From Tubulanus polymorphus (taxonomy: Eukaryota; Nemertea; Palaeonemertea; Tubulaniformes; Tubulanidae), in NCBI RefSeq assembly GCF_964204645.1, contig NC_134028.1, positions 4,128,501-4,192,500 on the forward strand: a DNA stretch of 64,000 nucleotides, read 5' to 3'. The translations under genes were made by a program, and so were the position numbers. The notes beneath the pieces are model-generated. The model did not search any database. It saw only the letters and a list, made by a program, of their open reading frames with translations, and had not been told where the DNA came from. Position 1 is the stretch's first letter; every line of letters begins with the position of its first letter. Positions 15,358 through 43,256 of the stretch are shown piece after piece.

Positions 15358-15360
15358 ATT

Positions 15361-19709: not shown

Positions 19710-19989
19710 CTGTACACAAGAGTGATGGGTTTCGAAGAAAAGCTGGTCAGTACTGAAAAATATATTTGTTTGTGGACATCCTGGTAGCGTAATTTGTCTG
19801 AACTTCATGGAAACTGATGACTCAAAACCAGTTCATTTTAATGTTAGAATAGGCTGCTTCGATGTAGGAAAACCGCAAAGTTTATGATTTGATAATTTAC
19901 ACCGCGAACCGCAGACTCCATTGTAATCAAATTAATCTACGAAAGGCAAACAATGAAAAAAGTACCTAAAATCAGTGGTTCAACTTGCG

Positions 19990-20500: not shown

Positions 20501-20504
20501 CAAT

Positions 20505-21880
20505 AAATGAACGATCCCTTATGATTATAATACGTTCTAAACTTTACGATAGGTTCTATACTGCCGTCTGCCGTCAGTCAAATATCGAGAATAACGAACA
20601 CGAGAATAAAACTAATTTCATTCTTCCCTCTGTTTGCATAATTTATGTAATAAATTCTGACTAGTTATAAGTCACCAGAGATTATGCAGTGAAATGTCGC
20701 CGGGCCTGCTGGATATTTGGCATTCTAATGATAGCAATCGAAAACCTTCAACCGAAATCGTTAGTTCGATGAGAATGACTATTTTTACCTTCGCCGGCAT
20801 CATTAGATTAGAAACCAGAAGTTTTTGCTCTTCTCTGTGACATTTTCTAACCGTTTCGAGACACCTAGCTTTGCCAGGTTACAAAGAAAAAAAATTAGTC
20901 AGTTGGAATCTGTATACGACAAATTAATTCTTCCTCGCGATTCCGACCAAACGAACCGGGATTGGGCAATATTATAAAGACTCCTTTCATTTAATCAACT
21001 ATTCCGAAATTCAAAACTCTTTAGACGAATAGCGTAAAATAATTCAGATTATGACGACTGAAGTTCGTCCTATTTTATCTCGCGGTCGCCTTTGAATATT
21101 TTGAAAAGCAATGACGCTCTGCGAATCTGGGTACGAGATTATGATATGGCGGAATTCAGAATGCGACGATGCTGGAATATTGAAACCAACCGTTGGTGAG
21201 AAGCTGTCGAGATACGGAAGAGAAAAGAACCGCCGTTTTTCCGAGAAACGACATTAATTCGCTGGCGATGTCCCCGAGCGAGCGAGCGAAAAATTGTCTG
21301 CTAATAGAAAGCCAATTATTTCCGTCGGCTTGTTAACTTCGCGACGTCGAGAATGAAAATGGAAATGTGCATATACTAGACATCATTCGGGGCTACTGGA
21401 AACCTAGTTCTCCTTACGCGAATAATAATTGTTTGATATACGATCAGTCTTAGGCAATAATTGCATCTTATTCACGAATAATTCCTTTGAAACAGATTTC
21501 ATGGTCCTCCATCAAGGGAGTTGATAGATAGATTTGCTTTTATTATTTGTTAATTATTTCCATGAAAATTGCGGTTCCATCGCCTGATATTAAATGTGTT
21601 GTTTACTGCCTCGTAGGTAGCCGTTACATATAGTAGGAAACGTATATTCATGTTGTTAGAAGCAAGAATCCGCTCTGCAAATTTTTTTTTGTTTTTAAAC
21701 TTTTGATAGAACTATATCAATGAACAGTAGTTAATGAATCACTTGAAATAGTAAAATCCGTAATTTAGTAATAAAACGTAAAAAATCCCACAATTTTAGA
21801 TGGACTCATAAGCGCAGCTTATTGGAATATAGAAAACATTTCGGGTGGGTACCACTAACCTTCGTCTGTCTAAATGATAG
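20505..21880. other. Gene desert
   Basis: No gene, RNA gene or clear repeat seen. Confidence 0.45.
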
Positions 21881-21882
21881 TT

Positions 21883-22058
21883 AGGCTAAAATTACCTTAC
21901 CTTCTTTCTGCTGCGCTTAAATGTTGACCGGACCGCCAACGTTACTGTTTTTAAAACCATGATCAAGCTAACCATAACTAACATAACTGATTACAAACGT
22001 CATTGCAGTTTACAAAACGACCCGCCGATTAGGAGAAACGAGGTATCATTTTCAGCCT
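21883..22058 (-). mobile_element. MITE family A, copy 3 (reverse orientation)
   Basis: Reverse-oriented relative of the 14178 element: right end GAGGTATCATTTTCAGCCT, left end AGGCTAAAAT, and the internal words GACCGGACCGCC and CTGATTACAAACGTCATTGC. It lacks the AGGGTAGATAGGC block, so it has an internal deletion. Confidence 0.72.
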
Positions 22059-23584
22059 TATTCATTTTAGATTGACGAAGGGTGGTAACAACCGAAATAT
22101 TTCTGTATTTTAATTTTTTATTTTTTATTTAATTTTTAAAAGGTTTTATTCAATTTGCAATTGTAGGATATCTTGTTTATAACATAGTTAATGCTTGATA
22201 TGATTTGCCGTTTTAACTATAATATATTGTAATTGTTTGATCTAAGTTATGGGAAATCACCACTTTTACTCACGCACATCTGATGGTTTACATACGCGTG
22301 GAATCCATAATTCATGAAGACTATAGTCACCGTGAATTTAAGGTAGAATATCATGTAATATACTAGTCATTCGTGTCAATTTTCAAATGTAAGATGCGTG
22401 ATGAACCAAAACTACATTCTATCAATTTTGCACTGGCCTGACCTTTCATTTACAATATAGCTAAAATGTCAGCGGCACAAAACGGTTTCCGGAAAATCTA
22501 TTAGTAAATGAAAACCGTGTAAAAACCTCTTAGAAAATTGACGTAGTGTTAATTATTATGATGATACGAAATCTATGTATTCATGGGTTGGGGACATTTA
22601 AATCGTTGCTTACTTCGTTCTTCTCGAATAGAGGTTATAATAAAGATCAATAAGTGAAAAATTCCCCGTGTGGAAGCCCTATGGATTTCGGGTAGATATA
22701 AGACAAATGTTGAATTTGTTCTCCTCAAGTACAGGACAGAATGAAAAATATTCATTTGTTTATTTGTTCATTAAGCGAATGATGATTTTATCAATCCAAT
22801 CTTTAGGATGAAAATGAAAAATCTAATGTCTATATTTTTATTTCGTCTTTGTTTTGCTTTTTTATTTTACTTGATCAAAATGTTCGTTAATCCTTGGTCT
22901 CGGGTGTGTAGCTATATAAAGATACATTTCTCCCAACTGCTTGAAATAACTTATCGGCCGAGTTTATCGTAAACCCGGGATAGCTTCTCGAAAGTCGAGA
23001 ACAATAATTCATTAATTCAGTTCGTTCCTGGAATGATCCGGATTAACATTAGCGGTGTTAATAGACACTTCCTCTTGCTGCAGTTAACAACTCGGTTTTA
23101 CAGCCGGTTATAGTTTCTAGGAAAATAGAGTTCGTATGGAAGGATAGAACATCTGCCTTGTCGTGAATATAGACCATTTTATGAATTGTTACTTTTTAAA
23201 ATTTAGCTGTGTGTATACATTGGTTTCCGGATGATTGGAAAACCATTAATGTCGATTGAAGCAGCGGTCTGGAGCCATTTGGGATCCTTACGATTTTCTG
23301 AGTAAATAATACTGGGAGAATTTGAATCATTATACATCATACAGTGGGAACTCGTTAATACGAATCTTTTGGACAAAAGTATAATTGTGTTCTTAATCGG
23401 GTTTCGTATTATCCAAAGTTTGATTGATATAAATATCTTAGCTGGGACACGCTGGAAATCATCCTAATAAACAATTTTCGTCTTAAACAGAATTATTGTA
23501 CTGTAGTGGCGAGGTTTATGAATTTCTTATATTATTTGACGAGGCCTGACTGGTCAACTCACTGACAGGACAAAATACCTAAAA

Positions 23585-23650
23585 TAACGGCTCAGTGGTG
23601 GTAGCGGCTAGTACCCGGTGTTTTTGAGTTCTAGCTCCGATCCATGGAAC
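23585..23650 (+). mobile_element. tRNA-derived SINE head (fragment)
   Basis: A-box-like GGCTCAGTGGTGG is followed about 40 bases later by a B-box-like GAGTTCTAGCTCC, the spacing of a Pol III promoter. No complete cloverleaf is evident, so this is called a SINE fragment rather than a tRNA gene. Confidence 0.45.
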
Positions 23651-25290
23651 ACTTATGAAATAATTTTCAGTATTGAAAGCGAGAGTATTTTCAATTGTCA
23701 TTCCCAGGGTTCATTGATTTTTCCATTCTGTAAAAGTTATTCATCGTCGTGCCGAGATTTCTACATTGAATATCGATATAACCGATAATGTTTTCACGTA
23801 CAAACGCGGTTTATATCAAAAACGTATTTCAGTATCTCGACTGTCATCGGGACATTTTTTAGATTTACTATTGAAATCGTAGATAACGATTCTACTGTTT
23901 GAATGCGATATTATCTAAATGGGTCGTATTTTAATGAGGTTAGTTGGCATTCATGTACTTTCTTTTACTTGTTCCGAGTTCAAATTGTCATTTTACGCCA
24001 TCACCAAAACCTTATTCGCCGATTCAAATTTTGTCTATGAAATCCGACGCTTATATTTGCAAGGTGTGTATAACATGTTTGTCATATTCCGCTTTTTCTT
24101 GATGCGCATCTACAGTTTCATTTGACAAAATGGATAACGTAGTCACGGGCATTTTCAATTTCTCAGAAGCCATTGTTTTATGTGCATCGTAGCGGTGTTG
24201 GTTGACTATGCACCACGCACGTAAAAACATAAAACAAAGTTTCATTTTCCGAGAATCTTTCGATAAGAATTGTAAAAAGCTTATACTAAAAATGGACACT
24301 CGATCGCATCCAGTGAGTTGCGAGATTAGATGCTTGCCTACGTCAAGTAGATCCGATATGGTTACCATAATCACGAACATAAACATATCTAGAAGGAACT
24401 AAACTCGTCCAAGAACGAGTTTATATCTCACTTGACACTTGTGACGGCCCTTATCTTTGTTTCATAATGTCTATTCTTTATTTTCGGATATCGAATATCA
24501 GAAATATACTGAACAGGAATTGAACCTTTCAGACATGAGTCTAAAAATAAGCTGACCATACCGTTAAACGTCGAATAGATTGATAAAAAGAAAAAGGTTC
24601 AAGTTGTTTAATGTCGGTTACTATTTCAGAATTTCTTGCATTTCATTTGTTTTGAATATAGCCGATTTCTCTTTTCGTTTTTGACTCGACCAATCTACAT
24701 GTCTTTTGGCATTTTCCTATATTTCATTCCTTATGAAACATTCCTTAAAAGAGTATTCTTACCTCTAGATCTGAATTCTATGTACATCCACATCTTTGCG
24801 GATTTATCGTAACGTTGCAAATCGCTTTTTTAATCTAGAATTTTCATAAGGTTTTCTTTGAGTTCTACTCTTTCAATTGGATTGAAGCAGGTTCAATCGT
24901 TCGCATGGAAAATAGCTTTTAGGTCTAAAAAGCTAAAAATGTCATCATAATCATGATATTTTTGCCCGAGTTGCCCTCAAAAGAGGTAAATTTCAAAGAA
25001 TTCTGTCTCATGACCACGCGTGCTATACGAGTTCACAAAAATATCCATTCCAAGAAACCGATCTTACCTAGACTTTTCAAACTAGATAACTTGCTGCATA
25101 CGTCTGAATCTTAAAAACCTATAATTGCTCACTTTTAAGTTTTGTAATGGAAAAATCTAAGATTAGATAAGCAAGGTGAATGATTGAAAATTTCACCATT
25201 CTATCGTGTTAGATTATCTCTTATCGAGCGACTAAAATGATGATGACTCTGACAGGATGAAGATATAAGCGTTTCAGACAAATTCCAATG

Positions 25291-25780
25291 TTTTGACGCC
25301 GTAAAAACCGTTACAAAAAATAATTTTATACATCGAAAAATATTGGGCGCTATTCAATGATAATGAATGAAAATAAATAAGTTTTATATACGTAGCGCAG
25401 GTATTTTATTGAAACAGTTCAGATGCGCTCCTCGGTAAGTGTCGTCCGAGTGGTAGTGAGTGCTCGAGTGATAGTACGTACGTCGATGTGCACTACGTCA
25501 TCAATATTAGTGTTTCAGAATAAAACTTACAATTGGGAATATTCTATTTGTACAAAAAGGTTCACAGCCTCTATTTCATGAATTTTCATTTGATTCTAAT
25601 AATGCATTTAAATTGAAATTAGGACATTGTGCGAGTGGATGTGCACTACGTCATCAATACTGGGGCTCGACTGGTTGGTGGTCAATTGTCGATAATTCGA
25701 AATTCAAGATATTTTGTTGGTCCTGAATATTTCTTTATATATTATATTATATCAATCACTGTCGACAATATTAAGAAATA
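25291..25780 (+). repeat. Dispersed repeat B, copy 1
   Basis: Shares an ordered series of words with 36151-36475: TTTGACGCCGTA(A/G)AAACCGTTAC, TCGATGTG(C/T)ACTACGTCATC, GTTTCA(G/T)AATAA, a second CACGTCATC/TACGTCATC word and CACTGTCGACA-type sequence before TTAAG(A/C)AATAT. It is non-coding. Each copy contains two TACGTCATCAATA-like, CRE-related words. Confidence 0.6.
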
Positions 25781-26023
25781 TATATACAAGCGCAGGCCAC
25801 TCCCTGAAGCAACAGGTCGAAGTCAATCACAGAATCTGGACCCATATCTATCATTTCTGAAAATAGAAATTCTCGGTAAAACTATCATTGTCATATATAT
25901 GATTGGTTACATTATTTTCTAGTAAATAATCACATTCGTTTGTTTGTGAAACAAACAAACAAATACGTTCTCGATAAATAGAACATTGTGTTGCGTGTAT
26001 GCACACAATACGTATATCATTAC

Positions 26024-26117
26024 AATAAAAACGGGCGAGGTATTTCTTGGAACTGGTTCCGCTCGGTAAATCCGACTGGATTCCAGGTAAAGCCATCATT
26101 GCAGCGACACCCGCCAT
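26024..26117 (-). CDS. Candidate 5' exon of an unrecognised gene (weak)
   Basis: Minus strand: TTGAAATGGCGGGTG places an ATG in a YY1-like context. It is followed by a GC-richer open frame (MAGVAAMMALPGIQSDLPSG then TSSKKYLARFY) and a possible donor (GTAATG at 26018-26023). I do not recognise the peptide. Together with the minus-strand candidates at 24051-24386 and 19496-19709 it might mark an unknown gene, but the link is speculative. Confidence 0.2.
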
Positions 26118-26621
26118 TTCAACTGTTAGCAGTATACCATCAGTACAGATGTTACCTCGAGTCGCGATGGTCTATCGTATTATTTTTCGTGTTGTTTTGA
26201 GGCTGTTATAGTGTCACCAAAGTTCAAGGAACTCGGGTCCATTTTTAGTTCGTTTTCTAGATAAACAACATGTTTTCATTTCCAATTCGAGTATGTATCG
26301 ACCGTCACAGCCGAGTTGGAGCTTCCATTCATCGCTTCACATAACGACAGATTCTAATCGATATTGTCGTTCAAGAAAATAATAAAATTGTTTGCAACCA
26401 AATAAAGATGTAACCGTACTTCAGTTTATTAAATGAATGTTCCACAGAGGCGTGGATCAACGGGAAACGTGCGTAAAAAACATGGATTCTAAAACGAATC
26501 GGAGTCCATGGTAAAAACTCGCACGTACGTATCAGTGCACAGTCTTCATCTGTGAACACCTCTTTCCTTTGATCGCGTAAAACTACTAACACCACATGAC
26601 TGGTCGATTGCCTCCTTTAGC

Positions 26622-26623
<2 letters not shown>

Positions 26624-26686
<63 letters not shown>
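26624..26686. repeat. TA microsatellite, interrupted
   Basis: Two (TA)n runs flank a short GAAAAAAAAAA block, giving a potential cruciform or hairpin. Simple repeat, no gene. Confidence 0.9.
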
Positions 26687-29600
26687 GGATATCTCTGTTT
26701 CCAGGAAATGTCTCGTACCAGTTTCAGATAACCTTGAGGTTCGTATATTGAAAAAAAAACCGCTCAATTATACCCGAGTTATCAGTTGTATACCGAACCT
26801 GCGATAAGGAAACTTCGGCCTCACATTCTTTAATTCAAAGAAAAGTTCGCTGGTAAGGTGTAATCCTACGTGCAGTTTTCTCACCGAACATGAAACACAC
26901 CCGACTGTCTATTCCAAATACCAAATCTGAAAGGTCAAGAAAAACGATAAGAGGCGACGCACCCCGTTTTAAAGGAAAGGGGTATCTTGATTCTTGTATA
27001 AGTTGCGTCGAAATATCACACTATCTATATCCGTGTCTGTTCGTAGTTTTTTCTTTCGTGTTCTTAGCTCTCAAGTCTATGATCTAGATCAATCTATTGT
27101 TTTTGTATAATGAATGATACCAACAGGCTGTCAAGTGGTCTTTGAAAAAAGCAGATGAAAATAGGGATACTCCTATTGGCATATTTTAAGTATAGATTCT
27201 AGATTGCTGGACAAGGCCGGGAATTGACTCACAAATATATATTGTTTTTTACTTATGCTACGGGAATGCTCCAAACATGAAAACATGTACGTCATTAAAT
27301 AGACAATCAACGCAACAACAATACGTGTGAGTCAAAATCATTTCTTAAAAGCGCAGTGTAATCAAGTATCGATATAGCATCCCTCAAGGGCGGGTACAAA
27401 CATAGCCAAACGGTAGGAAACCGGTACGACAAAAAAGAAAAAAACAGTATATTTCATGGCGTGCGAGGTGTTCATTTTGCACAAAAAAATGAAAACGAGA
27501 ATAGGTTATTTTCTTTTCTAAAATCTACCCCATTTCTGAAGTCAATTTTGCACGTTGAACACCCAACTTCTGGCTACGGGCATACTATGCTAGTCGTCTT
27601 CGTTCCCTCCGAAAGTACGTCTGTCGACATGACCTCTGCCATAACATGATTTTACCCTTCCAGGTCACATTAATTGCACCCGTATTCCAAGAAATCATGT
27701 CAACCACACATATCACATTAGAGTTCCGGTTGGTCATTCGACTGGTCAACTACTGCACCCACCACAGCTGAACACAATCATCGGTTACGTAGATTGAACT
27801 CCTGTTCATTTTCCGGATTCTACTTATATGGAATATGAATTCTCGTAATAATGAAAATATGAACAACTTTTAAACACCAAATCAAACGTTATAAGAGAAG
27901 TACATGATAAAAGAAGACAAATAATGATAAAATGGGAAACGATTTTACTTGGGTTTTCAATTTCAGACAACACCGATAAGAGTTAATTATCTGTACTTAT
28001 GTGATTAGAATTAGGGATGCAATGAATCTATATACAAGCATCAGACCATCTTGGATAATATACAAAAATCCATCCTTTAAGAATGCACTGCACTTAAAGG
28101 TTTGCACGCGATGTCAGGACGAGAAGTTCATGATAAAATCGCATTCAATCTTCTTGGAAAAACATTATCAATAATCGGATAATTGCAATTCAAATATAGA
28201 TAAGCGACTATAATTAGTATTGATAGAAACATGTAGCCGTTCTGTTACGCGGAATTATACTAAATTTTCTACAGCTTGAAGTTTGAACCCGCGTACGAGT
28301 TATTTGAATAACGGTATAGTATCGATTCGTGAAAAAAAGAAGATCGAAACGGTAACGGAAAATCTTATCGTTTACTGAAAATCGTTCGTTCTTTTGCGTA
28401 ACATTCACACAAAATTCATACAAAGGAATCGCATGACACAAATAAAGAAATGGAAAGATCATGGTACATTCTAACGGATTCTATTTCTGGCTACGGACTG
28501 GAACACCAACTGGAATCATTACTTTATGGTTATTATCCTTGACCTAGAGACTTCTGGAGAGACTTGCGGTTTAGGTTTTTCTTGTAAGATTTATAGCGAC
28601 AAACCGATTTCCATTCATTATATATCGGAGGTTTTCGTGAATGAAGAAGAACAGTGGGTTGTTTACAATTTTCGTTTTATGAACGAAACTAGATCCTTGA
28701 TTGCGGTTAAAGGCCCTATCTCTTAACCGGAACACGGACTAAGCCTAATATGCACTGATTATTATTTCACAGGCTTGGTTCCAATTCAGTTTGTTTACTT
28801 CTAACTCATCAGGGGTCTAGACGTGATGGGTATGTCGTTAGATTCTTGACACGTTCATCTGCCAATTCTCAGTCCCAGCATAACGAAATGGTAAGGATCC
28901 TTGTAAATGAAAACACTGAACAACCAAAACTGTTTATCGGTCTTCTGATGAGCGTGCACGAATTTAGATGGTCAGCAAAAAGGATAATTGAAAACACTTT
29001 TCTATTTCAAAGACTATAGAAACCGGCGATCTCGGATACGAGATAATTGGTTTCGATGAAATAAATCGAATGAATACACGAAGACTCGTGACTCTGTATA
29101 GGATGACACGGTGGGCGCCGTATGCGAGGATTTGAAACTGACCGCCATCTGTTCCGAATCTGTCCTGTGGCGATTTTCTTTCCATAGATGACCAATTAAT
29201 TCAACATTCTGACCACAGCAGATTCGGGTAAATTGCACTATTAAATAGAATGTTATGATAGTTCACGTTGGTCCGTTTCCCAGAAATTATACACCGTTAA
29301 CAACTGTCCATTACTTCATATATTCTCCTGTTCGGTGAACTTTCCAAGAACTCCGCCTGATGTCATATCACGTAACAATGCGTGGTCGAACTGCTGACAA
29401 CATCTGCAGATGTATATACATGATCCTCAGTTTAAAGCGCTCGTATTTTTAAAGATTTTTATGAAAACTAATGATACCGATACCGGTACCGTATACATTG
29501 TACCGGTACCGTATACATTGTACCAGGCGTTTAAAGTTCTCTGACGGCATTAAGAAAATGTCTAACTTTTTGCTTATAGCGCAGGGAGCTTCTCCCACCT

Positions 29601-31927
29601 CCCTGGGTAGAGTGAGAGCAGTGTTGCCGCTTCGATGGACTATATATTTCTACGCTCACGCTTCCCTTTACCCGATTATCTGTTACCGTTGGCGTTTGCA
29701 CCGACCCTGGCAGTAGAGGTTGCCATACCGCGCGCGGCAGGCCGTCTGACATTATTAATAGTGGAGTTTCCAGGAAACTAGTACATTCAACAACAGATTG
29801 CTGTATTAATAGTCGTAACTCCCATAATGATATATTACTGCCATATGCAAAAAGTATATATTTGGACTACATATTCGTACGTTAATCAATGAAGTTTCTT
29901 TTTGTAAAATGATATCTATGATGCGTAATTTGTAAATGTGTCTTTGTATATTTTTGTTTCGAATGACTTTTACTCCGTCAGATCTCGTAATTCTTTGCGA
30001 AGTGTGCCCGAGATAATCATTTGCGGTTTCTTTCAATGTAGCGTATATTTGCTTTTTGACCCGTGTTGTCAGTTTCTGTATGGAACGCCAAGTTATTCGC
30101 GTTTCAACAAAACGGAATTGACCGCAGAGTACGCCATTCATTACACTGCGCGAACGGATTAACAGACGATCTCGTTTTCCTGGAAATACTTCTTCTGCTC
30201 TGGCGTTGATCCAAGTAGAAAGCGCTGTCAACGCGCTATTCCATAAAATACATCTATTTTTTACTCGTCGATTCCATTATAAGATATCTCATTTTCTATT
30301 GTTATCAATCTTGCGACCGGAGATTGACCCTGCTTCCCACGAACCGAGGAACAGGGATGCGACATCGAAATTATCTCAATTCATTTTGAATTATTTCTCA
30401 TGGACGAATAAGATCTGAATTTTAAAAACATTAAGAAGATACATCATTAGAAAATTGCTACATGAAGAAAATGCATATAAATACCACCTAACGCGGTAGC
30501 GTCGGGACTGAAAATATCTATGTCAGCGTGATAACCGGAGAATTTGAAAGTTTTTCCTAATTAATTTTCGTACAATGAATTACCGAAACTCGAGCGATTT
30601 ACCGAGTTGGCCAGTTCCGAGTAAGGAGTCTAAAACTGTTGAAAGGGTTATAAATAAAAGCATGGGAAATGATGCGTGGGGTTTAAGTCTACTTTAACAA
30701 ATTAACATTCCCTGCCGTTTCAACATGCGCTAAGAAAAATACGAAAACTCGCGCCGAAGAATTGGCGAAAACACGAACAAATCTCTACGTAAAACTATTA
30801 CATGTTGCGGTTTCGTGACAAAAATTTAGCCGTCCACTTGGAAAATGCTCTCCTACGCACACTTTCCTTATTTTCGTGTAATGATGTATTGTTTGCTCAG
30901 GCGACGACGGCGGAATCGACAAGTGCCGGAGTACTACATTATGGCGTGAAATATCGTAGTACGAAATTAATGATTTTTCCATCTATCAAAACATATCCTT
31001 ACGATATTACGCGTTATTTAGTAGCGCAGTTCCGTGGTTAAAATAAGATTCGGAGCGAAAACAATAATCTAAGAGTTTACAGCTGTTCAGCGTAAATAGC
31101 AAATTATTTCAGATGGGGTTTTTTCATACAATGTAGAGTTGGGATTACAATGTACCTGTCCTGTTTTCGTTATGAGCAATAGTGTGGAAATGTTTAAATT
31201 CTGCAAAAATTTGTTTAAAGGTAAAACAATGTACATTGTTGTCCGGTACACTTTGATAAAAAAAGATTCTCATATACGAGGAACCGATTTCAATAATCCG
31301 AAATCAAATTAACATTGTTCATTCATTTCTTTAGTTAAAAAATATCAATTTTATTCGTCATTTTAAAAATCTATTTTTTTCAGAGCTCAGTACGCTACAT
31401 CGCTCGAAACTTGAATGAATATAATAGTTTTTTGATCTGTCAATATTTAATAATAATGATAATAATAAAATTTTCTTTTTTACATACCATTACAATATAT
31501 ATAGCTCGGTACATATATGTACATGATGTACACCAACTATATATTGATTCAGTTTTCCATTTAAGTTCCACTTATGTACATCAGGTCTATAGCATAAAAA
31601 TGTATTGCACAAAATATATTATCATTTAGTAATATTATAAACACATAATTTTAATTATATATTAAGACCCTTTGTCGTCGGTTTTATATTGAGATATACT
31701 GCATTTGCAGAACAACAAATCCCTGTAATATCATATACATGTAGTCCAATTCATAACATATAAAATAATCCATAATTTCTTCCAACCCGTACGCGTTATA
31801 TATCAGAAAGTTAGTTCTCATTTCTATACCCGGTCTTGTATTCGATTAGTAATAAATTAAATCCATATTATCACAGATATCGTGTGTGTTAAATCCAAAC
31901 ATACTTTCGCCGGCGATTGTTTCCTTT
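26687..31927. other. Gene desert 3' of the SOCS gene
   Basis: No supported gene. A 20-base unit (CGGTACCGTATACATTGTAC type) is repeated in tandem at about 29481-29525. The longest open frames (29806-30231 minus, 30802-31041 plus) have no domain, splice context or protein-like composition. The SOCS 3' UTR should occupy the right-hand end. Confidence 0.45.
29481..29525. repeat. Short tandem repeat with KpnI-like palindromes
   Basis: Two and a bit copies of a 20-base unit containing the palindrome GGTACC and GTATAC. Confidence 0.85.
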
Positions 31928-33121
31928 TTACAAAGGGTATGGATACTGACTTAGATAGCTTTTCAATAAATTAGGTAATGGCAGTCGATGTACGTCCGCG
32001 GATGGATTTCTCAAAGTTCGACAAATTGCTTTACGTGAGCAGTGTTTCATCATTGGGACGCATTTCAACACAGGCTTCGTGATTTTGACAGGTAAATCGC
32101 GCCGTCCTGTGCTGTCCAATAGTACCCGTCGACCCGACTTTCCTTGTACTCTCTTCACGTAGTACATTATCAAGCTAATCACACAGTCAAACGTAGGCAT
32201 TCTAGTTTTGAGACAGTCCTCGCTATCCAAACGAAATTTACCCTTATGATACTCGATTCGAACGCTTGTCGTACCGCGGGGAGTTTTCAGACTCAGCGAG
32301 AACAAGTGATTCGGGTCGGAACTGTCGCGAAGCAAGAACGACCCGTTTTGCTTGCCCTCCAAAAGCTCAGTGGCTTCTTTACTCGAAAGCCCTTCATAGT
32401 AAAATCCACTGATGTACAAACGATGCATTACAGACTTTAAGCTCGAATAATCCTGTTCTGAGGTAAAAGGTATATACACAGGTGGACAGGCCACCGAATT
32501 GTCGGTTTCTAAACCACGAGAAGTACTGACCGTCGATGATTCGTCACCACAAGTTTCCGAGGTTGAAGTTGGCACATCTGGAACGTTAAAAACCACAGAT
32601 TCGAAAGAACACAACAAATTAGGGCTACACTGCTGTTGATCGTCGTCGCAAGTTTGTCCGGCAAAACTATCGCTACTCGTGCTGGCGACCGGCTGTAACA
32701 GATCTGACGACGAGTCCTGTGTAGTTTGTACTCGAAAAAAGTCGCTGCCGCTATTTTTTGCAACTGTATCAAACAGACAAAGTTGAGGAATGTCATGATT
32801 ATGATGAGATAGTAATCCTTTTGCTGCCGAATTAGTAGACGTTGAGGTGAGCTGGGCACCTCTTGAGTTTTGGCCGCAGTTGTCCACGCACTGCGGATTT
32901 GTAATCCGTTTGTAGCCATCGTTAGTAACACTGGGCTGCTGTACATCGAGTTGCTGTGGTTGCTTGGACATCACCAGGCATCTGGACCTTGTTTTATAAA
33001 ACAGGTCATTCGATGACAATAATTTCACACCTTTAATGAGTTTAAAACATTTTGACGCTGTCGCTTTTAGATTAGTTGATCGGTTGCTGTTCGGGACACT
33101 CACTGAAAAACTGTTCGTCAT
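31928..33121 (-). CDS. SOCS2: Suppressor of cytokine signalling, SOCS2/CISH type (SH2 + SOCS box)
   Basis: Intronless reading frame of 397 residues from the first in-frame ATG (33119-33121); a second ATG at 32968 is also possible. The first 230 or so residues are Ser/Thr-rich and low in structure. An SH2 domain follows (about residues 230-320: GFYYEGLSSKEATELLEG, phosphotyrosine-binding FLLRDSSDPN, VRIEYHKGKFRLDS). The C-terminal SOCS box contains KHCSRKAICR (elongin BC box region) and LPLPNLLKSYL (Cul5 box), ending SQYPYPL. By family knowledge it docks on phosphorylated cytokine receptors or JAKs and recruits an elongin BC-Cul5 ubiquitin ligase, giving negative feedback. The SH2 and C-terminal wording is closest to SOCS2/CISH; SOCS1/3-type kinase-inhibitory regions are not seen. 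The exact paralogue name is inferred. Confidence 0.93.
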   Translation of the reverse strand: MTNSFSVSVPNSNRSTNLKATASKCFKLIKGVKLLSSNDLFYKTRSRCLVMSKQPQQLDVQQPSVTNDGYKRITNPQCVDNCGQNSRGAQLTSTSTNSAAKGLLSHHNHDIPQLCLFDTVAKNSGSDFFRVQTTQDSSSDLLQPVASTSSDSFAGQTCDDDQQQCSPNLLCSFESVVFNVPDVPTSTSETCGDESSTVSTSRGLETDNSVACPPVYIPFTSEQDYSSLKSVMHRLYISGFYYEGLSSKEATELLEGKQNGSFLLRDSSDPNHLFSLSLKTPRGTTSVRIEYHKGKFRLDSEDCLKTRMPTFDCVISLIMYYVKRVQGKSGRRVLLDSTGRRDLPVKITKPVLKCVPMMKHCSRKAICRTLRNPSADVHRLPLPNLLKSYLSQYPYPL

Positions 33122-33272
33122 TGACTTGATGTATAAATTTTCGCACGAAAGTTTCTTCTTTTCAGATTTCAAACACGAACTCCTGAGAGGTGTGTAGAGT
33201 AGTACTGTCTCTGGCAGCTGTTCGAATATTACTGAACTAGTTAGTGATTGCGTATAGCACGCGCGAGTTCAC

Positions 33273-33280
33273 TATATACC
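33273..33280 (-). promoter_or_regulatory. TATA box of the SOCS gene
   Basis: GTATATAG on the minus strand, about 150 bases upstream of the start codon, predicts transcription from about 33245 and a short unspliced leader. Confidence 0.5.
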
Positions 33281-33417
33281 GTTCCACTGTGTTCGTAGTA
33301 CTGGTTCTTGCCTAACGTGTCGATGATAAGGTTTTACGCTGAAATCTAGCAAGAAAATGAGCTGTATCTGCGGTTCTTCTTCTAACTGAATGACACGTCT
33401 GACGGCGAGAGCAGCAA

Positions 33418-33523
33418 TTCTTCGAATTAACCCCTCGATGCTCGACCTGACCCAGTTTGATAGATTCCAGGAAACGTATATAACCTAACTAAGCATTGCG
33501 CTACGTCACCGAATTTCCAGGAA
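33418..33523. promoter_or_regulatory. Cluster of three STAT-type (TTCNNNGAA) sites upstream of the SOCS gene
   Basis: TTCTTCGAA at 33418-33426, TTCCAGGAA at 33465-33473 and TTCCAGGAA at 33515-33523 are spaced 47 and 50 bases apart, about 140-250 bases upstream of the TATA box. All three fit the palindromic STAT consensus. Vertebrate CISH and SOCS2 promoters also carry clustered STAT5 sites, consistent with feedback induction by JAK-STAT signalling. Confidence 0.7.
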
Positions 33524-33957
33524 TCCGCGTAGTTGTATCGCCCAATTCTGCAATCCGATAAAAAGCTCATACATAATACACTACAAAAACTGCTGGAATC
33601 CTTCTACCAACATACTAAAAATAATTAGCAATATTTTGATATGAATATTTACGCGTTAAAGACGTTGATTCGATACTATAGCCGCAAAGCATTCAGATGT
33701 CGTCGCAACATTAGAAAAACAAAATGGCGGACAAAAATATCAAAATTTCGTTTTGAAGATTGATATTCATGATAAATACAGGCGCTAATAATCAAATTTC
33801 GTGGTAAGATTAAAATTCATGTTTGCTCTCACTACTGCTTCGCGGTTACGATTCAAATCTATGACGCTCAGGTGGGCCATTGTTGTGATTTATGACTTTC
33901 GAAAAAATAATCTTCTAAACGCTGCAGACAAAGCAAACTAGATAGTGCCAATTGAGT

Positions 33958-33973
33958 ACACTAGATGGCGCCA
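33958..33973 (+). promoter_or_regulatory. CTCF-like motif
   Basis: ACACTAGATGGCGCCA differs at one core position from CCASYAGRKGGCR. It lies upstream of the SOCS promoter. Motif evidence only. Confidence 0.35.
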
Positions 33974-36150
33974 CAAGACGTTCATCGCAATCTTAACTTT
34001 CGCGCGCGGGTTGGTTCGAATCCACGAAATGCGTATCTTTTTTTAAACATTTTGTATCATCTAAAAATGGGATCAAAAGTTTTTTTCTGAAAAAGGCGAC
34101 TGATAAGTTCAAAAATTTCCTTAACGTTATTAGTCATTTTACTTGTCACGAGGGCAGTGCTTTCGGTGCAGATCTTGGACTGGTGAAGCCTGAAATACTC
34201 AACCAATCCCAGGGTAGTGTCTGAATAAAGTTTCTTTTTTTACATTAGAGTTTGAAACTGAACCTTTCGTGGTTGAACAGGGACGTAGTAGTTTTAGAAA
34301 TTGCTTTGAATTCTATGAAAACTGAAAAAAAGAAACTTATTGAGCCGCCTTTGTACCCACGTTCATAGATACCAATAATTGGATAATCTGTGAAATGAAA
34401 GCTACATAAAAAGTCTTGTCTGGAATTCTGGAATTTTCGTAGAATCTTTAATGCAATTTTGTCTCCGTTCTATACATGTATTGGTTATTCAAGCGCAATG
34501 CAAATAAGTGAAAACTTTTAATATATGTTTGTACAGACAAAAATACGGTACGTAGAAAAACGGAGAAAAAACTATTTTCTGAGAATTTTCGTTTGATTGG
34601 ATATTTATCTAGGCTTCCTAGAGTCGGTTTTTTAGTCAGATCAATAAACTGCGTGTAGATCGTTAGCAGAGGTGTTAAACTGCCATGGAAATAACAAAAC
34701 TTCGATGCGTTCCCTGTTAGTAGAAATGGGAATTCGATATCATCATTGTGGGCGAGAAGTTTTCACGGTATCAAAACTTTTGTCGCGAAACCCAGTAGAA
34801 ATAGGTACAAAGTTGATAACTTGAAAATGGTTTCTCTTTAAAAGTGACGAAAATATGTATGATTTCTGTGAAACGATCGATTATTCGTGCTATAAAAATA
34901 GACGATACGTCGACGAGAAATGTCGAAATTTTTTTCAGAATGTTGCGAATGAATGAATAATAATCAAGTCATGCGATGAATTTGATATGTAATAATCTTT
35001 CTCGTGTAGAGCTTTTTAATGAATACATATTTTTTTCGACGCCTCTCACAGCATGTCGCACTGCCTACCAGTGATTGTAACGGGTTTTATTTAGACTCGT
35101 GTGATGGCGATTCCAAGAATTTATCAGTTTGATAAAAACCAGTCTAAAAATGGCGCGTCTTTTTCGATATCCAGGGTTGTATACGGCATTATTATATAAG
35201 GTATAAGGATAATATAAGGTCTGAAATTTCTATGACTAAACTGATATTTGGGATTACAAGAATTGATAAGATAATCTTGATGAAACGCTCTGTCCGATGA
35301 AATCTCAAATTGTATAAGAAAAAAAAAACGATTCAAAGGGTTGCCTAGAGGAAGTTTATTTCAACGCTTCCACTCTATATCTTCAAGAATACTAATGTGA
35401 TGATTAAAGCAATTTTAGTGTATAACTTAAATATATCTGCGAGATGACTGCGCAATTCCAAGAAAATCGGCGAGAAAAAAATGCGTCAATTTTCTAGAGG
35501 CTTCAAAAATCCCCCCTGGAAATTTGAAACATCGATCATGTGTTGCCTCTTAACTGTAAAGTCTATCGCCTCCTAATTGAAACACTGATATTCTAACGAT
35601 AGTTCGGTGGTGACGCCCGGGTAGTTTTCAAGTTTGAAATTACCAGAAAATTCTGGGAACCTGGTACCGATTTTACAAAAACCATCACCTCTTCATAGAT
35701 TCAACTCTGGTGTAACCTAATCGCACGGTTACGTTACATTTCTGATACGTATTACATACATACATATACATTCGTGTTCGTTTTCTCAGAAATCATGGGC
35801 GATGCCACCGCGCACCGTTATAAAAATGTCGTCTACATTTTGTCATTCCGTGATTAAAAAGACATTTTACTGTCAGCGTTATGTCGTATATAGTTTCAAA
35901 AGAAATTGCGCTGAAAATTACCTACATCGTTGACGATAGATTAACTGTTCTTTTGATTACATTCATGTAATTTGTAAAACTTTTTTTTTCATCCTTATCA
36001 TATTTGATCTTCTTTTGTGCGGCGTTGCTCTTTTTCGACTGTCAGCTGGATTGGGATTCATGAGGTAGGCCTAACCAATTTTAGGTGCGTACATATCAAT
36101 TCCCGTTCGACCAGTACCCGCGTTCTATATTGAAATATTGCAATGTTGTT

Positions 36151-36475
36151 TTTGACGCCGTAGAAACCGTTACAATTAATGTTAACACGACATTACAGTG
36201 TTAGTCGATGTGTACTACGTCATCAATATTGGCGTTTCATAATAACAATTACAATAATGAATTTGTCGTTTATTTTGTAATTGAATATGATATTTTAAAA
36301 CTTATTCTATTTTTTACAAATAAATTTGAGAGGATGCACCACGTCATCAATAATTATCGGCACCGGTCAATTCAATTCAATTATCGATATTCAAATCCAA
36401 AATAATTTTATTGGTCCTTAATATTATATGATTTATATCATATTATTTATTGTCGACACTATTAAGCAATATGTG
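36151..36475 (+). repeat. Dispersed repeat B, copy 2
   Basis: Same order of shared words as the copy at 25291-25780, starting TTTGACGCCGTAGAAACCG and ending near CGACACTATTAAGCAATAT, but about 165 bases shorter. Non-coding. Confidence 0.6.
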
Positions 36476-37140
36476 TTATTTTTCTAGGCGTCAATAAACT
36501 TTCAAGTTAATTTTCTTGTTTTATGTTCGACGTTTCGGATCAGGAGAATATTCTACTGTTCTTTTTCTTTTAGGACTATTTTGAATTGATATTTATGTAT
36601 ATTGGCGACTCGTGTGTAAATATGGGGTTTTGGTTATTTACGTGGCGTGTTTCTCAATCAATCTAATTCCATCCTTATTTTCAAACCAACTTATCATAAT
36701 TCAACGAGATTTTCCTCCCGGTGTTGCGAAGATTTATCGCAAATTATATTTGTTCCGATTTGCATCTCTTCAATTCTCCACGTATAGCCTATTGGAAAAT
36801 AGACATCGCAGCCGTCATTAACTGAGACCTGAATTGATTTTTTCCTGCTGATTAAAAGTTTGATGCTAACAGCAATTTCAATAGTCTATTCGTGGAATTT
36901 AGTTAATTCAATATAAGTCGATGGGCATTTTGCTTATGTTAATCAAACCAGACACCGACGGTAGAGTGATTGTTCATATTTCCGCGCCCCAAGGCTGTTG
37001 GGGAACGTAAACTTGCTTTCTCTTGCTGTGTGATTATTTTCTTCAACTGGTTCTTGGAAATTCTTCCGCATTGAGACACACGATAAGACGCTGTTGATTC
37101 GTGTAGGCGGATTGTCGGTACGTAAATAAGAAATCACAAG

Positions 37141-37344
37141 ATGAGCTCGGTGGTCGACGAATCCTTCTTAACGTGTTTTCGTTTCGTCTACAAATATAAC
37201 GAGTGGCGACAGGTTAAAGGCTACCCGCTAGAAAAGTCTCTATCCGAACTTTCCATCCCCTCGAAGCTGATAGTCGCTATAATCACGTCGCCACCGCTGA
37301 AATATTTTCATCAGGATTTTCTGCACGGCATTCCACACTCGTAA
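37141..37344 (+). CDS. Small hypothetical open frame
   Basis: 67 codons from ATG (context ACAAGATGAG) to TAA, with higher GC than its surroundings. The peptide begins MSSVVDESFLTCFRFVYKYN and has no signal peptide, membrane segment or motif I recognise. No neighbouring exon or promoter supports it; it is possibly chance or a fragment. Confidence 0.15.
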   Translation: MSSVVDESFLTCFRFVYKYNEWRQVKGYPLEKSLSELSIPSKLIVAIITSPPLKYFHQDFLHGIPHS

Positions 37345-39302
37345 GCCGTATTTCCAGGAAAATTCAATTTGTTCGCTCCTTTTTATGTCAGGCGCTGTCG
37401 CTGATGTTGAGGCGAGACATAAGCGCCGCGCATCACTGAGTTATTGGCGTTCACCGAAAATCACATTATGCGCGATCTGTCTATAAAAGTATTTCAACAT
37501 AGATTTTCTATCCGCCCGAAACTTATCGCAAAATCGATTTCTTTTAAATCATCTTTCAGTCTAGACACACGTGTTAAGTTTACTAAGGGTTTTTTGGTAT
37601 GTTGCGGAGAAAAACCGCAACGACCTTTCGATTTCAGAAATATATCTGAAAAAGGTTCATCGAATAGCCACTTCATAGTAATTACTTATCTCAGGTATTA
37701 TTAGTATTGGAGATAATTGCGCAGGTAATAACACATTATTAACATCACGATAAACTCTTCCACAATTTTATCCATTATAATTTCCGCGAATCAGGTACCA
37801 ACCTTGGAGGGATTGTTATCTGTGTCGATGGGTTCAACTTCAGGTGGTAAAAATGTCATATATATTCTCCAATTTTCTGATCGTGTCACAAGCATCTGTC
37901 GGGGTGTCGATGGCATTTTGCCTGAATATTTCATGCAGAAAATGTACCTCTTACAGAGGTGAACTTGAAAGCGATCATCAGCGGTCAATGATCTCGTCTT
38001 CTTGCTACTCGTTAACTCAGTGGTCATTGAAAGGTTGACTTTTAATGGTTTGCTGTAACGAGCTTCGTTGCTGCGTCTATAATAATGAAGGATGTAGGTT
38101 TACAAAACCACTAAAATCAGAATTAATGTTTCCTTGCGATGAAACTATGAAAAATTGGTGCTGAATATTTGACTTTCAGCCAAAATCCGTCCGCTTTTTA
38201 CGTCGTTGCTTAGAAATTATCCAATAAAACCGGATCACTGATCGGGGCAGCCTTGTGTATAGCGTTCCAGGAATTACCATTACAATACTCAACCTGGCTG
38301 AGTTCTGGGAAATCGACTAGGCAAGCTCTATTTTCCGCATACCCTGGTTTGTGACACCTTTATACGGCTTCTGATTTGGATTGATAGGAGAATATTAATT
38401 AGATATCGATTTGGTTTGTAGGCCGCCGCAACACGGAGGAGAACATCGAGATGAAGGAGATTCCATGTTAATAGAATTAATTCAACTATTTTTGCACATC
38501 ATCCAGCCCCAATCAGCTTCACTGGGGTATGGAGTGTATGGGGATAGGGGCTGGTAATGTGTCGTTTTGCCGTATTAACATTATTAGCTATTTCTGGAAA
38601 GAGGGAATAAACTTATCGCGAAATATAACCCTCAGCTGATTACAAAGCGCAATTTTTCGTTTTTCTACGAAGCTAGTTTCTACGAAAAAGTCGTATACAA
38701 CAGGCCGGAACTTGTCTATGATATTTCATATCGTTTGCTGCTACCGTTACCGCCATCTGTATCAATGAATATATTTTGTAATTCATCGTCAGTTTTGGGT
38801 TTATATTTGTAAGCAATATTTGATAGCTTATTTATTGGTTTGGAACTGGGTCCCGAATAAAGGAAACTACAATCGATTTCGAGCCCAAACCGGCACACAT
38901 TGCGATACGTGAATCAAAAAAATTGCAATTCTCGGAAATTCATTCAATCAACGCGTGAATGTTGTGTTGTATATTGATTCAATATTCGTTTATTGGAGTG
39001 GCTTTGAAGAGATCGTGCTGATATCTTCTCATGTTTATATTTCCAGAATATTCATTCATAATTCGTTTTATGTCGATACCAGACACGAATTGCCGCGAGA
39101 TATTAGGGGGAAAAAACTTTGTATTATACAATTCAGTTTATTGCTTTTTTGAATGGGGACTTTAGGGCGGGGTGATAACTTTTAAGGATGAGGCTGATTG
39201 CACTGTCAGTCTGAGTAACTTTTCCGCAAACTAATAAAACATTGATAATATCGTTTGTTTTAGAATAGATATCCACACCTTTGTTATTTATATATTGTAG
39301 CG

Positions 39303-41260
39303 ATGTCTGTCAAGTACAGTCGGGTAGCTCTGTCAGATGATGCCGTGTTCGACTGCTCGTCTACGTTCGATTACTCAACGATACACAGATATAAACCACA
39401 GAATTACGGCATTGGTATCGATTTCCCGGGTACTCAACCCCACGCAGATGATGCCTACATTCAAGGTAGCTATCGAATTGCACATTCTGAAGTCTTTGAA
39501 GTAGACTTGATAATAAAACTGCAGTTAGGCTATATCTGCTGGAATAAAGGATGTTTTTTGGTCAATTTGTGCCAACAATATCCGTATCTCTCTCGGGTCT
39601 CGTCAATCCAGTGATCAAGGGTTCGAATCCTGGCAACGGAGTTTCTTGGTCGAAGGTTCTCGCGGTCTCTCGGCCTTGATTGGAAAAGAAATGAATATAA
39701 AACCTACCAATATATCCTTTTGTGGTGTTCCGTGGGTTGAGGGTAAAGGAAAGAAAAAATAAGCCGTTTTTCAAATTTCACACATTATAAGTAGTGTTTT
39801 TATTTTTTCCATTTCCGAGAAATTCTCTTAAGAAATATTGAACATCAGATTATTGTATTGATATATAATTTTTAGATGGCCTGTTTTTTTAGATCCAGGG
39901 ACGCCATTGAAACACAAATGCTTCATTATAAATAACTTTTTCGAAGATTTTCAATTATTACGACGAAGATAGCGGTACAAAGATTGTTTAACGTGTCAAT
40001 GAGGTGACATTTACTGTGATTTTGAATTGAATAGTTGAAAATATTCATTGAATGAACTGCTGCTTTTGGAATTCAAAACCAGCTCGCGGCGTTTATTCGT
40101 CGAAAGTGCCAGTTCTAAAAATATCCGTGTAAAATTTCTGTGAAGTTGTTACCTGACATGGTCGTTCACCCACAAACAAAATGACTTATTTTTGAAATGA
40201 TCTGTTGATGTTATCACTCCGAAGGTGCCAAATTCGAGATCGTGGTTAAACGAAGCTAAAATTGCTTATCTATACTGAATATATACATATATATATACGC
40301 GGTTTGTAGTACAAGGCCTTGACATTGAGTTCTTTATTTCTTGGAATTCTAAATTGACAAACGAACGATTCAAATTGTTCGGCATTATGTATATATTCAA
40401 CGTTTTATATATTTCATACATGCATAAATTACACATGAGACGGAATTGTTTGACAGATGTTATTGAATTATTGCCAATCTGAAAGCATAAAATCGGCAAA
40501 TTTCTTTCAAGTGTGGTGCATCTTCCCTTTGGGAATTTTTGAATAAAATTGGCTCGCAGTCACTTTCCTTAACGGTATTGAATTGAAAACGGTTGAGAAA
40601 ATTCTTGTGGAACGAATTGTGGAACCTATTAATGAACGATACATTTCAATTAATAGCAGCTAAACTTGGCTGCCATCCTTAATACAAAATGCCATTTAAA
40701 TTGACACTCAGTTTCTTCAACAGCAGCAACATTGTGATTTCCAGTTCTGATTGACGTTTATATGTATATCGTATTTTCAGGTAGACAGTCACTTTTGATG
40801 CGTTGTTTGACAGCTGTTATTGTTGCTATTTGTTACTTTATCACTCTGATTACATTCCCGATTTCATTATGTTTTGCCTTGAAAGTAAGTAGATTAAGAA
40901 GTTTTTACGTTCCCCTGTGATATAGCATAGTTCATAGTACATACCGCCTAGAAACATAAAACAATGAATATAAACAAACGAATTGACTATCATTACAACG
41001 TCAGTTGAATCTAATGAAATTATCAATTTATCTTTAAAGAATGTTAATCAGTATGAGCGAATTGTCGTATTCAGATTGGGGCGTCTACTTCCAGCTAAAG
41101 GACCAGGTAAACCAGTGTAGTTTTGGCCGTGAACATGTATACTTTCGTTTGAATTAACAATGAATTATTATTTTGCGCAGGTACTGTGATGGTTTTACCA
41201 TGTTTAGATCGGTGGAGGAAAATTGATATGAGAATGAGAGCGTTCAATGTACCCCCACAG

Positions 41261-41291
<31 letters not shown>

Positions 41292-43256
41292 CTACATATC
41301 TCTACGAAACACAAAGGATTAACAAAATTCGCTTTGGAGTCCAATTTCTACCCTATTTTTGGCTGACTTTTTTCTATTCATCCTCGTTTTTTCTATCGTC
41401 TAACATTTGGCTAATGTTGCCTACTTCTTTGTTTTGTACGGTTTAACTATCATTTGTCGGTGAATCTTATATGAAATAATCGGGGGAGGGGTGTTATCTT
41501 ATTAACGTGAAAAAATAGACTCTTTTCAACAATCAAGGCAATTCTGAGAATGTTTAACACGGCCGATGAATGCCAGGGTTGCGTTGTAGGAGTTAGATCT
41601 CGTTTTCTGATAGTCATGGCACTTCCGTGTTGTCATTGGGCCGTTGAATAATGGACCGGTCATGTTTTATAAGGTCCCTTTCCTTAAACTATCTGTCACT
41701 TAAAATAAAATTACATTTATTGCAAGAGAACCCAGCTATGTTTCAGTGCGGTTCAGCCTAAGTTACCGGATCATTTCAATGACGTATTTTTGTTATTTTT
41801 CAGGTTCTGACGCAGGATAACGGAGTCGTTGAAGCCGGAGCCGATATTTACTTTCGCGTCAATGACGTTTCGTCTTCGGTTACTCACATCCGAGACCTGA
41901 ATCAGTCGCTGCGGATACTCGGACAGACGTCACTGATTAATCGACTTGGGAAATTAGACAGCGATGAAATAGAAACTTCGCGAAATGTGATCAATACAAC
42001 TATCCAGGTTTGCCGCCTTCATTTGCATATTTTCAGTCAACTCCGAACTTAAAGATTTATTTTCGCGCAGAAACGCTCCTCGAAAATTGATGTTCTGACA
42101 TTTTTTTTCGAACAGGAAGATCTCAATCAAATGGCACGCAGCTGGGGTGCCGAAATTGGGAGGGTAAACCTGTAAGTTCCGTGTTACACCGTAAGATTCG
42201 TGTTTCATCATACAGATCATTTGGATATTCATTTTAGAATATGTTCTTCAAAATATTTCAGGTCAGAAGTAAAAATTATCCATAAACCTCCAGATAAAGT
42301 CAGTCAACTTGGATCTCTATTATTTCCACAAGCGCTTAGCGCATCATCTTCAGAACAAACAAAGCTTTTGAATCTACTAGCAGGTAAACTCGATTTCAGT
42401 AAGAAGAATTGCTGTTGAATATTTCATTTCAAGCAAGGAGAATCATTTATCCTTTATGCGATCGACCTTATAAAGCGAGGATGTTTTTTTTGTTCTATTT
42501 AGGGACAAAAGCTTCAGATATAGCTTCATCGACTGATACTCCGTCTAACAACACCGAATCAAGCAAGTCTGTGACAATCGAAATGAATCCAAATCAAAAT
42601 ACGCCGTCAATGTTAATAGAAAGTGCAAGACAAGCTCTTAATTCGAGCATAGTCAATATGATCGGTGCCATTTATAAGTTTGACTTGCGAGGTGACGATG
42701 GTGGCGTTTATTATCTGGATGCTAAACACGGTATTTATACTTGCTTTGATATTGATGACAGTAGACTCTGCTTGAGTCGGATCCGATCAACTCGGATAAC
42801 CGTTCAACTCTGAGGAGATGTTCAATCATTGTTAGATATTTTTGTGGCTCTAAAAAATATACATGAAGTACATTATATGTCCAACTCGGATATCATTAGT
42901 CAAGTCGAACACATTGTTACGGTCCCAAAAGGTCAGATTTCAGCGGAGTCTACGTTAATTGAAATCTTTTTTACTTTTTCTTAACTAAGGACATCGTTTC
43001 AGGTGAAGGATCAGCAGGTAAAGGTGAACCGCCTACTGAGCCCGACGTTACTTTGACTTTCAACACGTCAGATTTGCAGCCATTGCTGTCTGGACAGTTA
43101 GAACCGTTTCAAGCTTATATGGACGGTAAATTGCATTTAGCCGGTGATATGGGAGCGGCGATGAAATTACAAAAACTTTCCGATTGGATCCGCGGTTCGG
43201 GACATCTACTGAAAGCCTCTGATCATCACCAACCCGGATCTGTATTTCAAGTTTAG
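39303..43256 (+). CDS. STOML1: Stomatin-like protein 1 (PHB/SPFH domain fused to an SCP2 domain)
   Basis: Nine exons: 39303-39465, 40781-40884, 41040-41106, 41181-41263, 41804-42007, 42116-42171, 42262-42383, 42503-42730 and 43003-43256, all in phase, 426 residues. A cytosolic N-terminus is followed by a hydrophobic hairpin (about residues 58-86, LTAVIVAICYFITLITFPIS), a stomatin/PHB domain (ERIVVFRLGRLLPAKGPG, VEAGADIYFRV, SRNVINTTIQEDL; about 92-235), a Ser/Thr-rich linker and a C-terminal SCP2 sterol-carrier domain (TFNTSDLQPLLSGQLEPFQA, YMDGKLHLAGDMGAAMKL). This PHB-SCP2 fusion defines STOML1, a late-endosome membrane protein linked to cholesterol transfer in mammals. Length and order match the family. 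An AATAAA lies at 43355-43360, about 100 bases after the stop. Intron 1 holds a SINE fragment. Confidence 0.95.
39585..39765 (+). mobile_element. tRNA(Leu)-like SINE, 5'-truncated copy
   Basis: Shares with the reverse-strand element at 62090-62280 the B-box (GGTTCGAATCC here), the downstream block GAGTTTCTTGGTCGAAGGTT, a GGTCTC word, and the tail word GTGGGTTGAGGG. The A-box part is missing. It lies in STOML1 intron 1. Confidence 0.75.
41264..41292. repeat. TA microsatellite in STOML1 intron 4
   Basis: A (TA)n run starts right at the donor of the fourth exon (GTATATATA), so the splice site itself is part of the repeat. Confidence 0.85.

What the first reader, a model, noticed from the sequence alone, without database searches (positions are those of the whole stretch)
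33418..33523. Three regularly spaced STAT sites in the promoter of an invertebrate SOCS2/CISH-type gene
The sequence shows TTCTTCGAA and twice TTCCAGGAA, spaced 47 and 50 bases, just upstream of a TATA box and an intronless SOCS gene. Vertebrate CISH/SOCS2 promoters use clustered STAT5 sites for feedback. If this is real, the feedback wiring is an ancestral bilaterian feature or a striking convergence.
Basis: partly seen in the sequence, partly recalled or inferred. Interest (0 to 1): 0.7.

Follow-up and report, generated by a model that had tools for sequence, protein, structure and literature searches.

The report
STAT-site-loaded domain around SOCS gene
The three STAT-like sites in front of this invertebrate SOCS gene (a brake on cytokine signalling) belong to an array of about 39 such sites spread over some 27-31 kb around the gene, about 13 times the genome's normal density, which suggests that the pathway switches on its own inhibitor through the whole neighbourhood and not only through the promoter.

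Summary
Only the last two fit the STAT5-type consensus TTCYNRGAA. The "regular" spacing rests on two intervals and means little. The gene is a real intact SH2+SOCS-box gene, best matched by SOCS2. It is more exactly the invertebrate SOCS1/2/3/CISH type. The genome has one detected STAT gene, and it is STAT5-like.

The promoter is only part of a larger signal. The window holds 39 TTCYNRGAA against 6 expected from the genome-wide rate. All lie in 14.4-45.6 kb (2.9 expected there), 38 of them in 14466-41542, and none in the other 33 kb. Only the 3-base spacer is enriched. The flanks extend to ATTTCYNRGAAAT, and the sites sit in unrelated sequence, so this is no repeat. No other Pfam-recognisable gene lies in that stretch. 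The SOCS4/5, two SOCS6/7-like and STAT loci are near background.

Best explanation: a locus-wide STAT-responsive domain driving feedback on the CISH-type SOCS gene. The wiring is known (Drosophila Socs36E, mammalian Cish/Socs2); the scale is unusual. Ancestry versus convergence could not be tested because no related genomes were available. Binding, expression and the TSS are unproven.

The parts
31928..33172 (-). Intronless ORF of a SOCS protein (SH2 + SOCS box), SOCS1/2/3/CISH type; up to 414 aa, true start codon uncertain; frame open up to 33268
33418..33426 (.). TTCTTCGAA, TTCN3GAA but not YNR; doubtful STAT site
   Evidence: class hardly enriched
33465..33473 (.). TTCCAGGAA, consensus STAT5-type site, promoter-proximal
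33515..33523 (.). TTCCAGGAA, consensus STAT5-type site, promoter-proximal
33274..33279 (-). TATATA, possible TATA box; Inr-like TCACT with A at 33246
   Evidence: weak, TATATA is common here
14466..41550 (.). STAT-site array: 38 TTCYNRGAA (about 1.4/kb vs 0.094/kb genome mean); a 39th at 45578
14466..14791 (.). three sites at the left end of the array (14466, 14685, 14783)
29277..30185 (.). four sites 3' of the SOCS gene (29277, 29342, 29768, 30177)
34577..35791 (.). five sites upstream of the promoter (34577, 35111, 35456, 35651, 35783)
41798..43178 (+). Neighbour gene at the right edge of the array: Band_7-like match followed by SCP2 domain (stomatin-like-1 arrangement)

Best explanation
The SOCS gene sits in its own regulatory territory of about 27 kb that is loaded with binding sites for the animal's STAT5-like protein. 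When a cytokine receptor activates JAK, STAT dimers would bind the promoter-proximal pair at 33465/33515 and many dispersed sites up- and downstream and induce the SOCS gene. The SOCS protein, through its SH2 domain and SOCS box, would then shut down receptor/JAK signalling: a negative feedback loop. The many scattered sites probably form several enhancers that act additively, making the induction strong, sensitive and available in many cell types. Shown: gene identity, sites, their enrichment, shape and boundaries, absence of the array at the other SOCS genes and the STAT gene, presence of a STAT5-like protein. Inferred: STAT binding, inducibility, target gene, feedback.
For: 39 TTCYNRGAA in the window vs 6.0 from the genome rate (Poisson p 4e-19); all in 14.4-45.6 kb where 2.9 are expected, 0 in the other 32.8 kb. 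Only the 3-base spacer is enriched; spacers of 2, 4 and 5 and the inverted motif are not, against Markov models of order 1-3. Unbiased tests: TTC-N3-GAA is the strongest dyad apart from TA-rich ones among 26,945, and TCTTGGAA/TCCAAGAA top the 8-mers against 221 kb of the same genome. Flanks show ATTTCYNRGAAAT (T at -5 in 43 of 78 half sites, p 1e-5), the extended STAT5 motif (my own knowledge). Flanks are unrelated among sites and the promoter is single-copy. No other Pfam gene in 14-41.7 kb in six frames. Counts near expectation at the other SOCS loci (1, 2, 2 in 22-25 kb) and the STAT locus (5 in 24 kb). The one detected STAT has a DNA-binding region matching STAT5A at 6e-87 vs 5e-13 for STAT1. 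In 1.1 Mb of C1 the most sites in any 31.2 kb is 8.
Against: No expression, chromatin or binding data. No related genome, so no conservation test. TTCYNRGAA is also recognised by other factors (BCL6-type zinc fingers, from general knowledge). Genes without a Pfam domain or non-coding RNAs in the array could be the real target. Domain edges were chosen after seeing the data (the whole-window p of 4e-19 does not depend on them). The genome could not be scanned for all comparable arrays, and a second dense segment exists (C2:6434295-6438950), so the property is not unique to SOCS.
Confidence: 0.72

Rival explanations
1. Only the promoter-proximal sites matter; the remaining array is a passive by-product of base composition, repeats or drift.
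For: Two consensus sites lie within about 280 bp of the presumed TSS, the usual place for STAT sites in SOCS promoters.
Against: The array is enriched about 13-fold over the genome rate with a specific spacer and flanks, is not made of repeats, and spacers of 2, 4 and 5 are not enriched.
Confidence: 0.1
2. The array is read by another factor with a STAT-like motif, such as a BCL6-type zinc-finger repressor, alone or in competition with STAT.
For: BCL6-type proteins bind TTCYNRGAA-like sites (general knowledge).
Against: The BCL6-type site TTCCTAGAA is not enriched (1 in the domain); the favoured cores are TTCCAAGAA/TTCTTGGAA, TTCCAGGAA and TTCTCAGAA, which fit STAT5. A SOCS gene at the centre favours STAT.
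Confidence: 0.1
3. The array regulates a different target: an unannotated gene or long non-coding RNA in 14-30 kb, or the neighbour with Band_7/SCP2 domains.
For: 23 of 39 sites lie 3' of the SOCS TSS; some short open frames have mild coding-like scores.
Against: No Pfam match in six frames and no Rfam match in the stretch. The array stops near the flanking genes, surrounds the SOCS gene, and includes its promoter.
Confidence: 0.08

Closest known systems
Drosophila socs36E, direct STAT92E feedback target
   Same: SOCS gene with many STAT sites near it (19 putative STAT92E sites in the promoter region; reporter from first intron; PMC3238392), in an invertebrate
   Different: socs36E is related to SOCS5 (PMC3238392), and the fruit fly is reported to have lost the SOCS1/2/3/CISH type (PMC3296744). 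Here the CISH-type gene carries the array and the SOCS4/5-like locus is at background; here 39 strict TTCYNRGAA over about 31 kb
Mammalian Cish, Socs2 and Socs3 promoter-proximal STAT elements
   Same: STAT sites of GAS type near a CISH/SOCS2-type gene, bound by several STATs in many cell types (PMC3564941)
   Different: the mammalian conserved elements are described as promoter-proximal; here sites extend over the whole intergenic territory
Clustered STAT92E enhancers, e.g. Drosophila vvl
   Same: distant clusters of TTCN3GAA sites acting tens of kb from the gene (PMC2877871)
   Different: in vvl 85 sites of 3n plus 4n type in 144 kb, a modest excess over chance; here only 3n sites, about 13-fold for the strict motif

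Membership tests
SOCS family, SOCS1/2/3/CISH type | SH2 domain followed by C-terminal SOCS box | tested here: met
   Pfam SH2 4.2e-8 and SOCS box 1.5e-5 over their cut-offs
SOCS family, SOCS1/2/3/CISH type | closer to SOCS2/SOCS3/SOCS1 than to SOCS4-7 | tested here: met
   SOCS2 2e-27, SOCS3 8e-23, SOCS1 1e-15, SOCS4 5e-10, SOCS6 2e-8; no tree could be built
STAT5-type (GAS) binding sites | TTCYNRGAA core | tested here: met
   33465 and 33515 and 37 others; 33418 does not fit
STAT5-type (GAS) binding sites | bound by STAT in vivo | not testable with these tools
   needs ChIP-seq or CUT&RUN
Homotypic cluster of transcription-factor sites | local site density far above genome background, not from repeats | tested here: met
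   39 vs 2.9 expected; unrelated flanks
STAT-induced negative-feedback SOCS gene | transcription rises with STAT activity and the product inhibits JAK-STAT | not testable with these tools
   no expression data; inferred from homology
STAT-induced negative-feedback SOCS gene | a STAT with an intact DNA-binding domain exists in the genome | tested here: met
   STAT exons at C6:5284818 onward, STAT5-like
Ancestral bilaterian SOCS promoter element | sites conserved in orthologues of related species | not testable with these tools
   no related animal genomes held

The most novel reading that the evidence does not exclude
The CISH-type SOCS gene of this lineage is controlled by a locus-wide STAT platform of about 39 sites over its whole territory, a feedback design in which the inhibitor is among the strongest STAT targets in the genome, and this is the ancestral bilaterian state that flies moved to the SOCS4/5 gene after losing the CISH-type gene.
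Probability: 0.2. Interest if true: 0.75.

Novelty: new variant of a known kind. Interest (0 to 1): 0.55.

Why it matters
SOCS feedback in invertebrates is usually described from one or two promoter sites or from Drosophila, which is reported to have lost the CISH-type gene. A 27-31 kb array in sequence alone gives a direct, testable prediction of where STAT acts. It suggests that feedback strength is built by many dispersed sites, and it makes the question of ancestral versus repeatedly evolved STAT-SOCS wiring answerable by counting sites around the orthologues in other animals.

Tried and rejected
Repeat origin of the sites: rejected (no shared flanks; few repeats in the window; the TTCCAGGAATTCCAGG dispersed repeat of this genome, does not match the promoter, which is single-copy). 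Base composition: rejected (Markov models of order 1-3, other spacers). TTCN4GAA (STAT6-type) enrichment: none. Regular spacing or close pairing inside the array: 8 gaps under 100 bp vs 4.5 expected, p 0.06, not convincing. Blood-cell co-factor signature: RUNX-like AACCRCA 19 vs about 7 and CGATAAG 12 vs about 4 are raised, but general GATA is not and many words were tested, so it stays a lead. Other coding genes in the array: none by Pfam in six frames; codon scores inconclusive. Rfam: nothing. A protein-tyrosine-phosphatase gene near the second cluster: none listed near C2:6.43 Mb.

Full report
OBSERVATION. The three motifs are at the stated places: TTCTTCGAA 33418-33426, TTCCAGGAA 33465-33473 and 33515-33523. 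The gene on the minus strand is an intact single-exon ORF with SH2 and SOCS box, closest among solved structures to SOCS2 (2e-27), then SOCS3 and SOCS1. The genome (268 Mb, unnamed) holds four SH2-SOCS genes by protein search: this one, a SOCS4/5-like one on C1 and two SOCS6/7-like ones (the 4/5 and 6/7 labels are my reading of the sequences). That is the complement inferred for the bilaterian ancestor, in which a single SOCS1/2/3/CISH gene precedes the vertebrate split, and which the fruit fly is reported to have lost (PMC3296744). So "CISH/SOCS2-type" is right in kind but better called SOCS1/2/3/CISH type.

STAT. One STAT gene was found, on C6. Its DNA-binding region, joined from the exons, matches STAT5A/B (6e-87), STAT6 (4e-53) and STAT1 (5e-13). 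The expected site is therefore the STAT5-type TTCYNRGAA.

PROMOTER. Two of the three sites fit TTCYNRGAA; TTCTTCGAA does not. The pattern of two TTCCNGGAA and one TTCNNNGAA with gaps of 20-50 bases gives 37 rows over both strands in the genome, nearly all of them tandem or dispersed repeats by eye; this locus is one of about three that do not look like repeats. The promoter has no second copy. So the promoter cluster is not chance, but the "regular spacing" is two intervals. TATATA at 33274-33279 with TCACT (A at 33246) downstream is a plausible core promoter, yet TATATA occurs 73 times in 31 kb, and a TATATAA reading the other way lies at 33477-33483, so the TSS is open.

THE ARRAY. TTCNNNGAA occurs 76 times in the window against 30 in dinucleotide shuffles, while TTCNNNNGAA does not exceed chance (32 vs 31). 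Markov models of order 1 to 3 give 7 expected TTCYNRGAA against 39 found; spacers of 2, 4 and 5 and the inverted motif GAAN3TTC are not enriched. The genome-wide count, 25,192, gives 6.0 per 64 kb. All 39 lie between 14466 and 45586, 38 of them between 14466 and 41550; none lies in the remaining 33 kb. The whole-window p is 4e-19 and that of the domain 5e-30, the latter with edges chosen afterwards. In 1.1 Mb of C1, counts per 31.2 kb have mean 2.5 and variance 2.4, and the most found in any 31.2 kb is 8, so the Poisson yardstick is reasonable.

UNBIASED CHECKS. Among 26,945 trimer dyads TTC-N3-GAA is the strongest apart from TA-rich ones. Against 221 kb of the same genome, TCTTGGAA and TCCAAGAA are the top 8-mers. 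The flanks are shaped: T at -5 in 43 of 78 half sites (p 1e-5), C depleted, A at -6, giving ATTTCYNRGAAAT. From my own knowledge that is the extended STAT5 motif. Flanks beyond that are no more alike than random pairs, so the sites arose separately.

SPECIFICITY. The other SOCS loci (22-25 kb each) have 1, 2 and 2 sites, and the STAT locus 5 in 24 kb (about 2.1-2.4 expected for each from the rate). In the part of a genome-wide search for close pairs that is listed (C1 to early C7), this locus has three separate pairs within about 9 kb. The only other apparently non-repeat place with two pairs within 31 kb, C2:6436813 and 6450453, proved on reading to hold 8 sites in 4.7 kb (C2:6434295-6438950).

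GENE CONTENT. Six-frame Pfam scans of 14-44 kb find only the SOCS gene and, at 41.8-43.2 kb on the plus strand, Band_7 (weak) and SCP2 matches. The array thus fills the intergenic territory of the SOCS gene and ends near its neighbour.

MECHANISM. The most likely reading is a STAT-responsive domain: promoter-proximal sites plus many dispersed ones inducing the SOCS gene, whose product inhibits the receptor/JAK. Sites, enrichment, motif shape, gene identity and STAT type are shown. Binding, induction and feedback are inferred. The spread of sites over 27 kb, without clear pairing (8 gaps under 100 bp vs 4.5 expected, p 0.06), suggests several additive enhancers rather than a few tetramer sites.

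KNOWN. socs36E of Drosophila has 19 putative STAT92E sites in its promoter region and acts in feedback (PMC3238392). Mammalian Cish, Socs2 and Socs3 carry STAT elements shared across cell types (PMC3564941). Distant clusters of STAT92E sites work in vvl (PMC2877871). The wiring is therefore known in kind. What differs is the scale and its placement at the CISH-type gene with the SOCS4/5-like locus bare. I found no report of such an array in the papers searched, which hold only open-access text.

LIMITS. Ancestry versus convergence is undecided.

Noticed in passing
G000 C2:6434295-6438950 (L064 296-4951): A second STAT-rich segment: 8 TTCYNRGAA in 4.7 kb against about 0.4 expected; its left end and its target gene are unknown.
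   Followed up: partly
window 14400-45600: RUNX-like AACCRCA (19 vs about 7), CGATAAG (12 vs about 4), GATTAAC (13 vs about 2.6) and TGACGTA (9 vs about 3) are raised in the array; possible co-factor sites, many words tested.
   Followed up: partly
window 33477-33508: TATATAA on the plus strand between the two good STAT sites, with TCACC 31 bp on; a possible divergent promoter.
   Followed up: no
window 25482-25540, 25635-25693, 36204-36262: Three copies of a roughly 25-60 bp element (GTCGATGTGCACTACGTCATCAATA...) on both sides of the SOCS gene, each with a CRE-like TACGTCA.
   Followed up: no
window 13378-13702: G+C-rich repeats (GGACACACTGGGCGATTTCGTCGGCCGACGAAATCGGC) just outside the left edge of the array.
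   Followed up: no
G000, e.g. C1:1806748, C4:16725942, C10:8779379: A dispersed repeat containing TTCCAGGAA several times (TTCCAGGAAAAGCCCTTAAAAACCCTGAATTTCCAGGAATTCC); it will confound naive genome scans for STAT clusters.
   Followed up: partly
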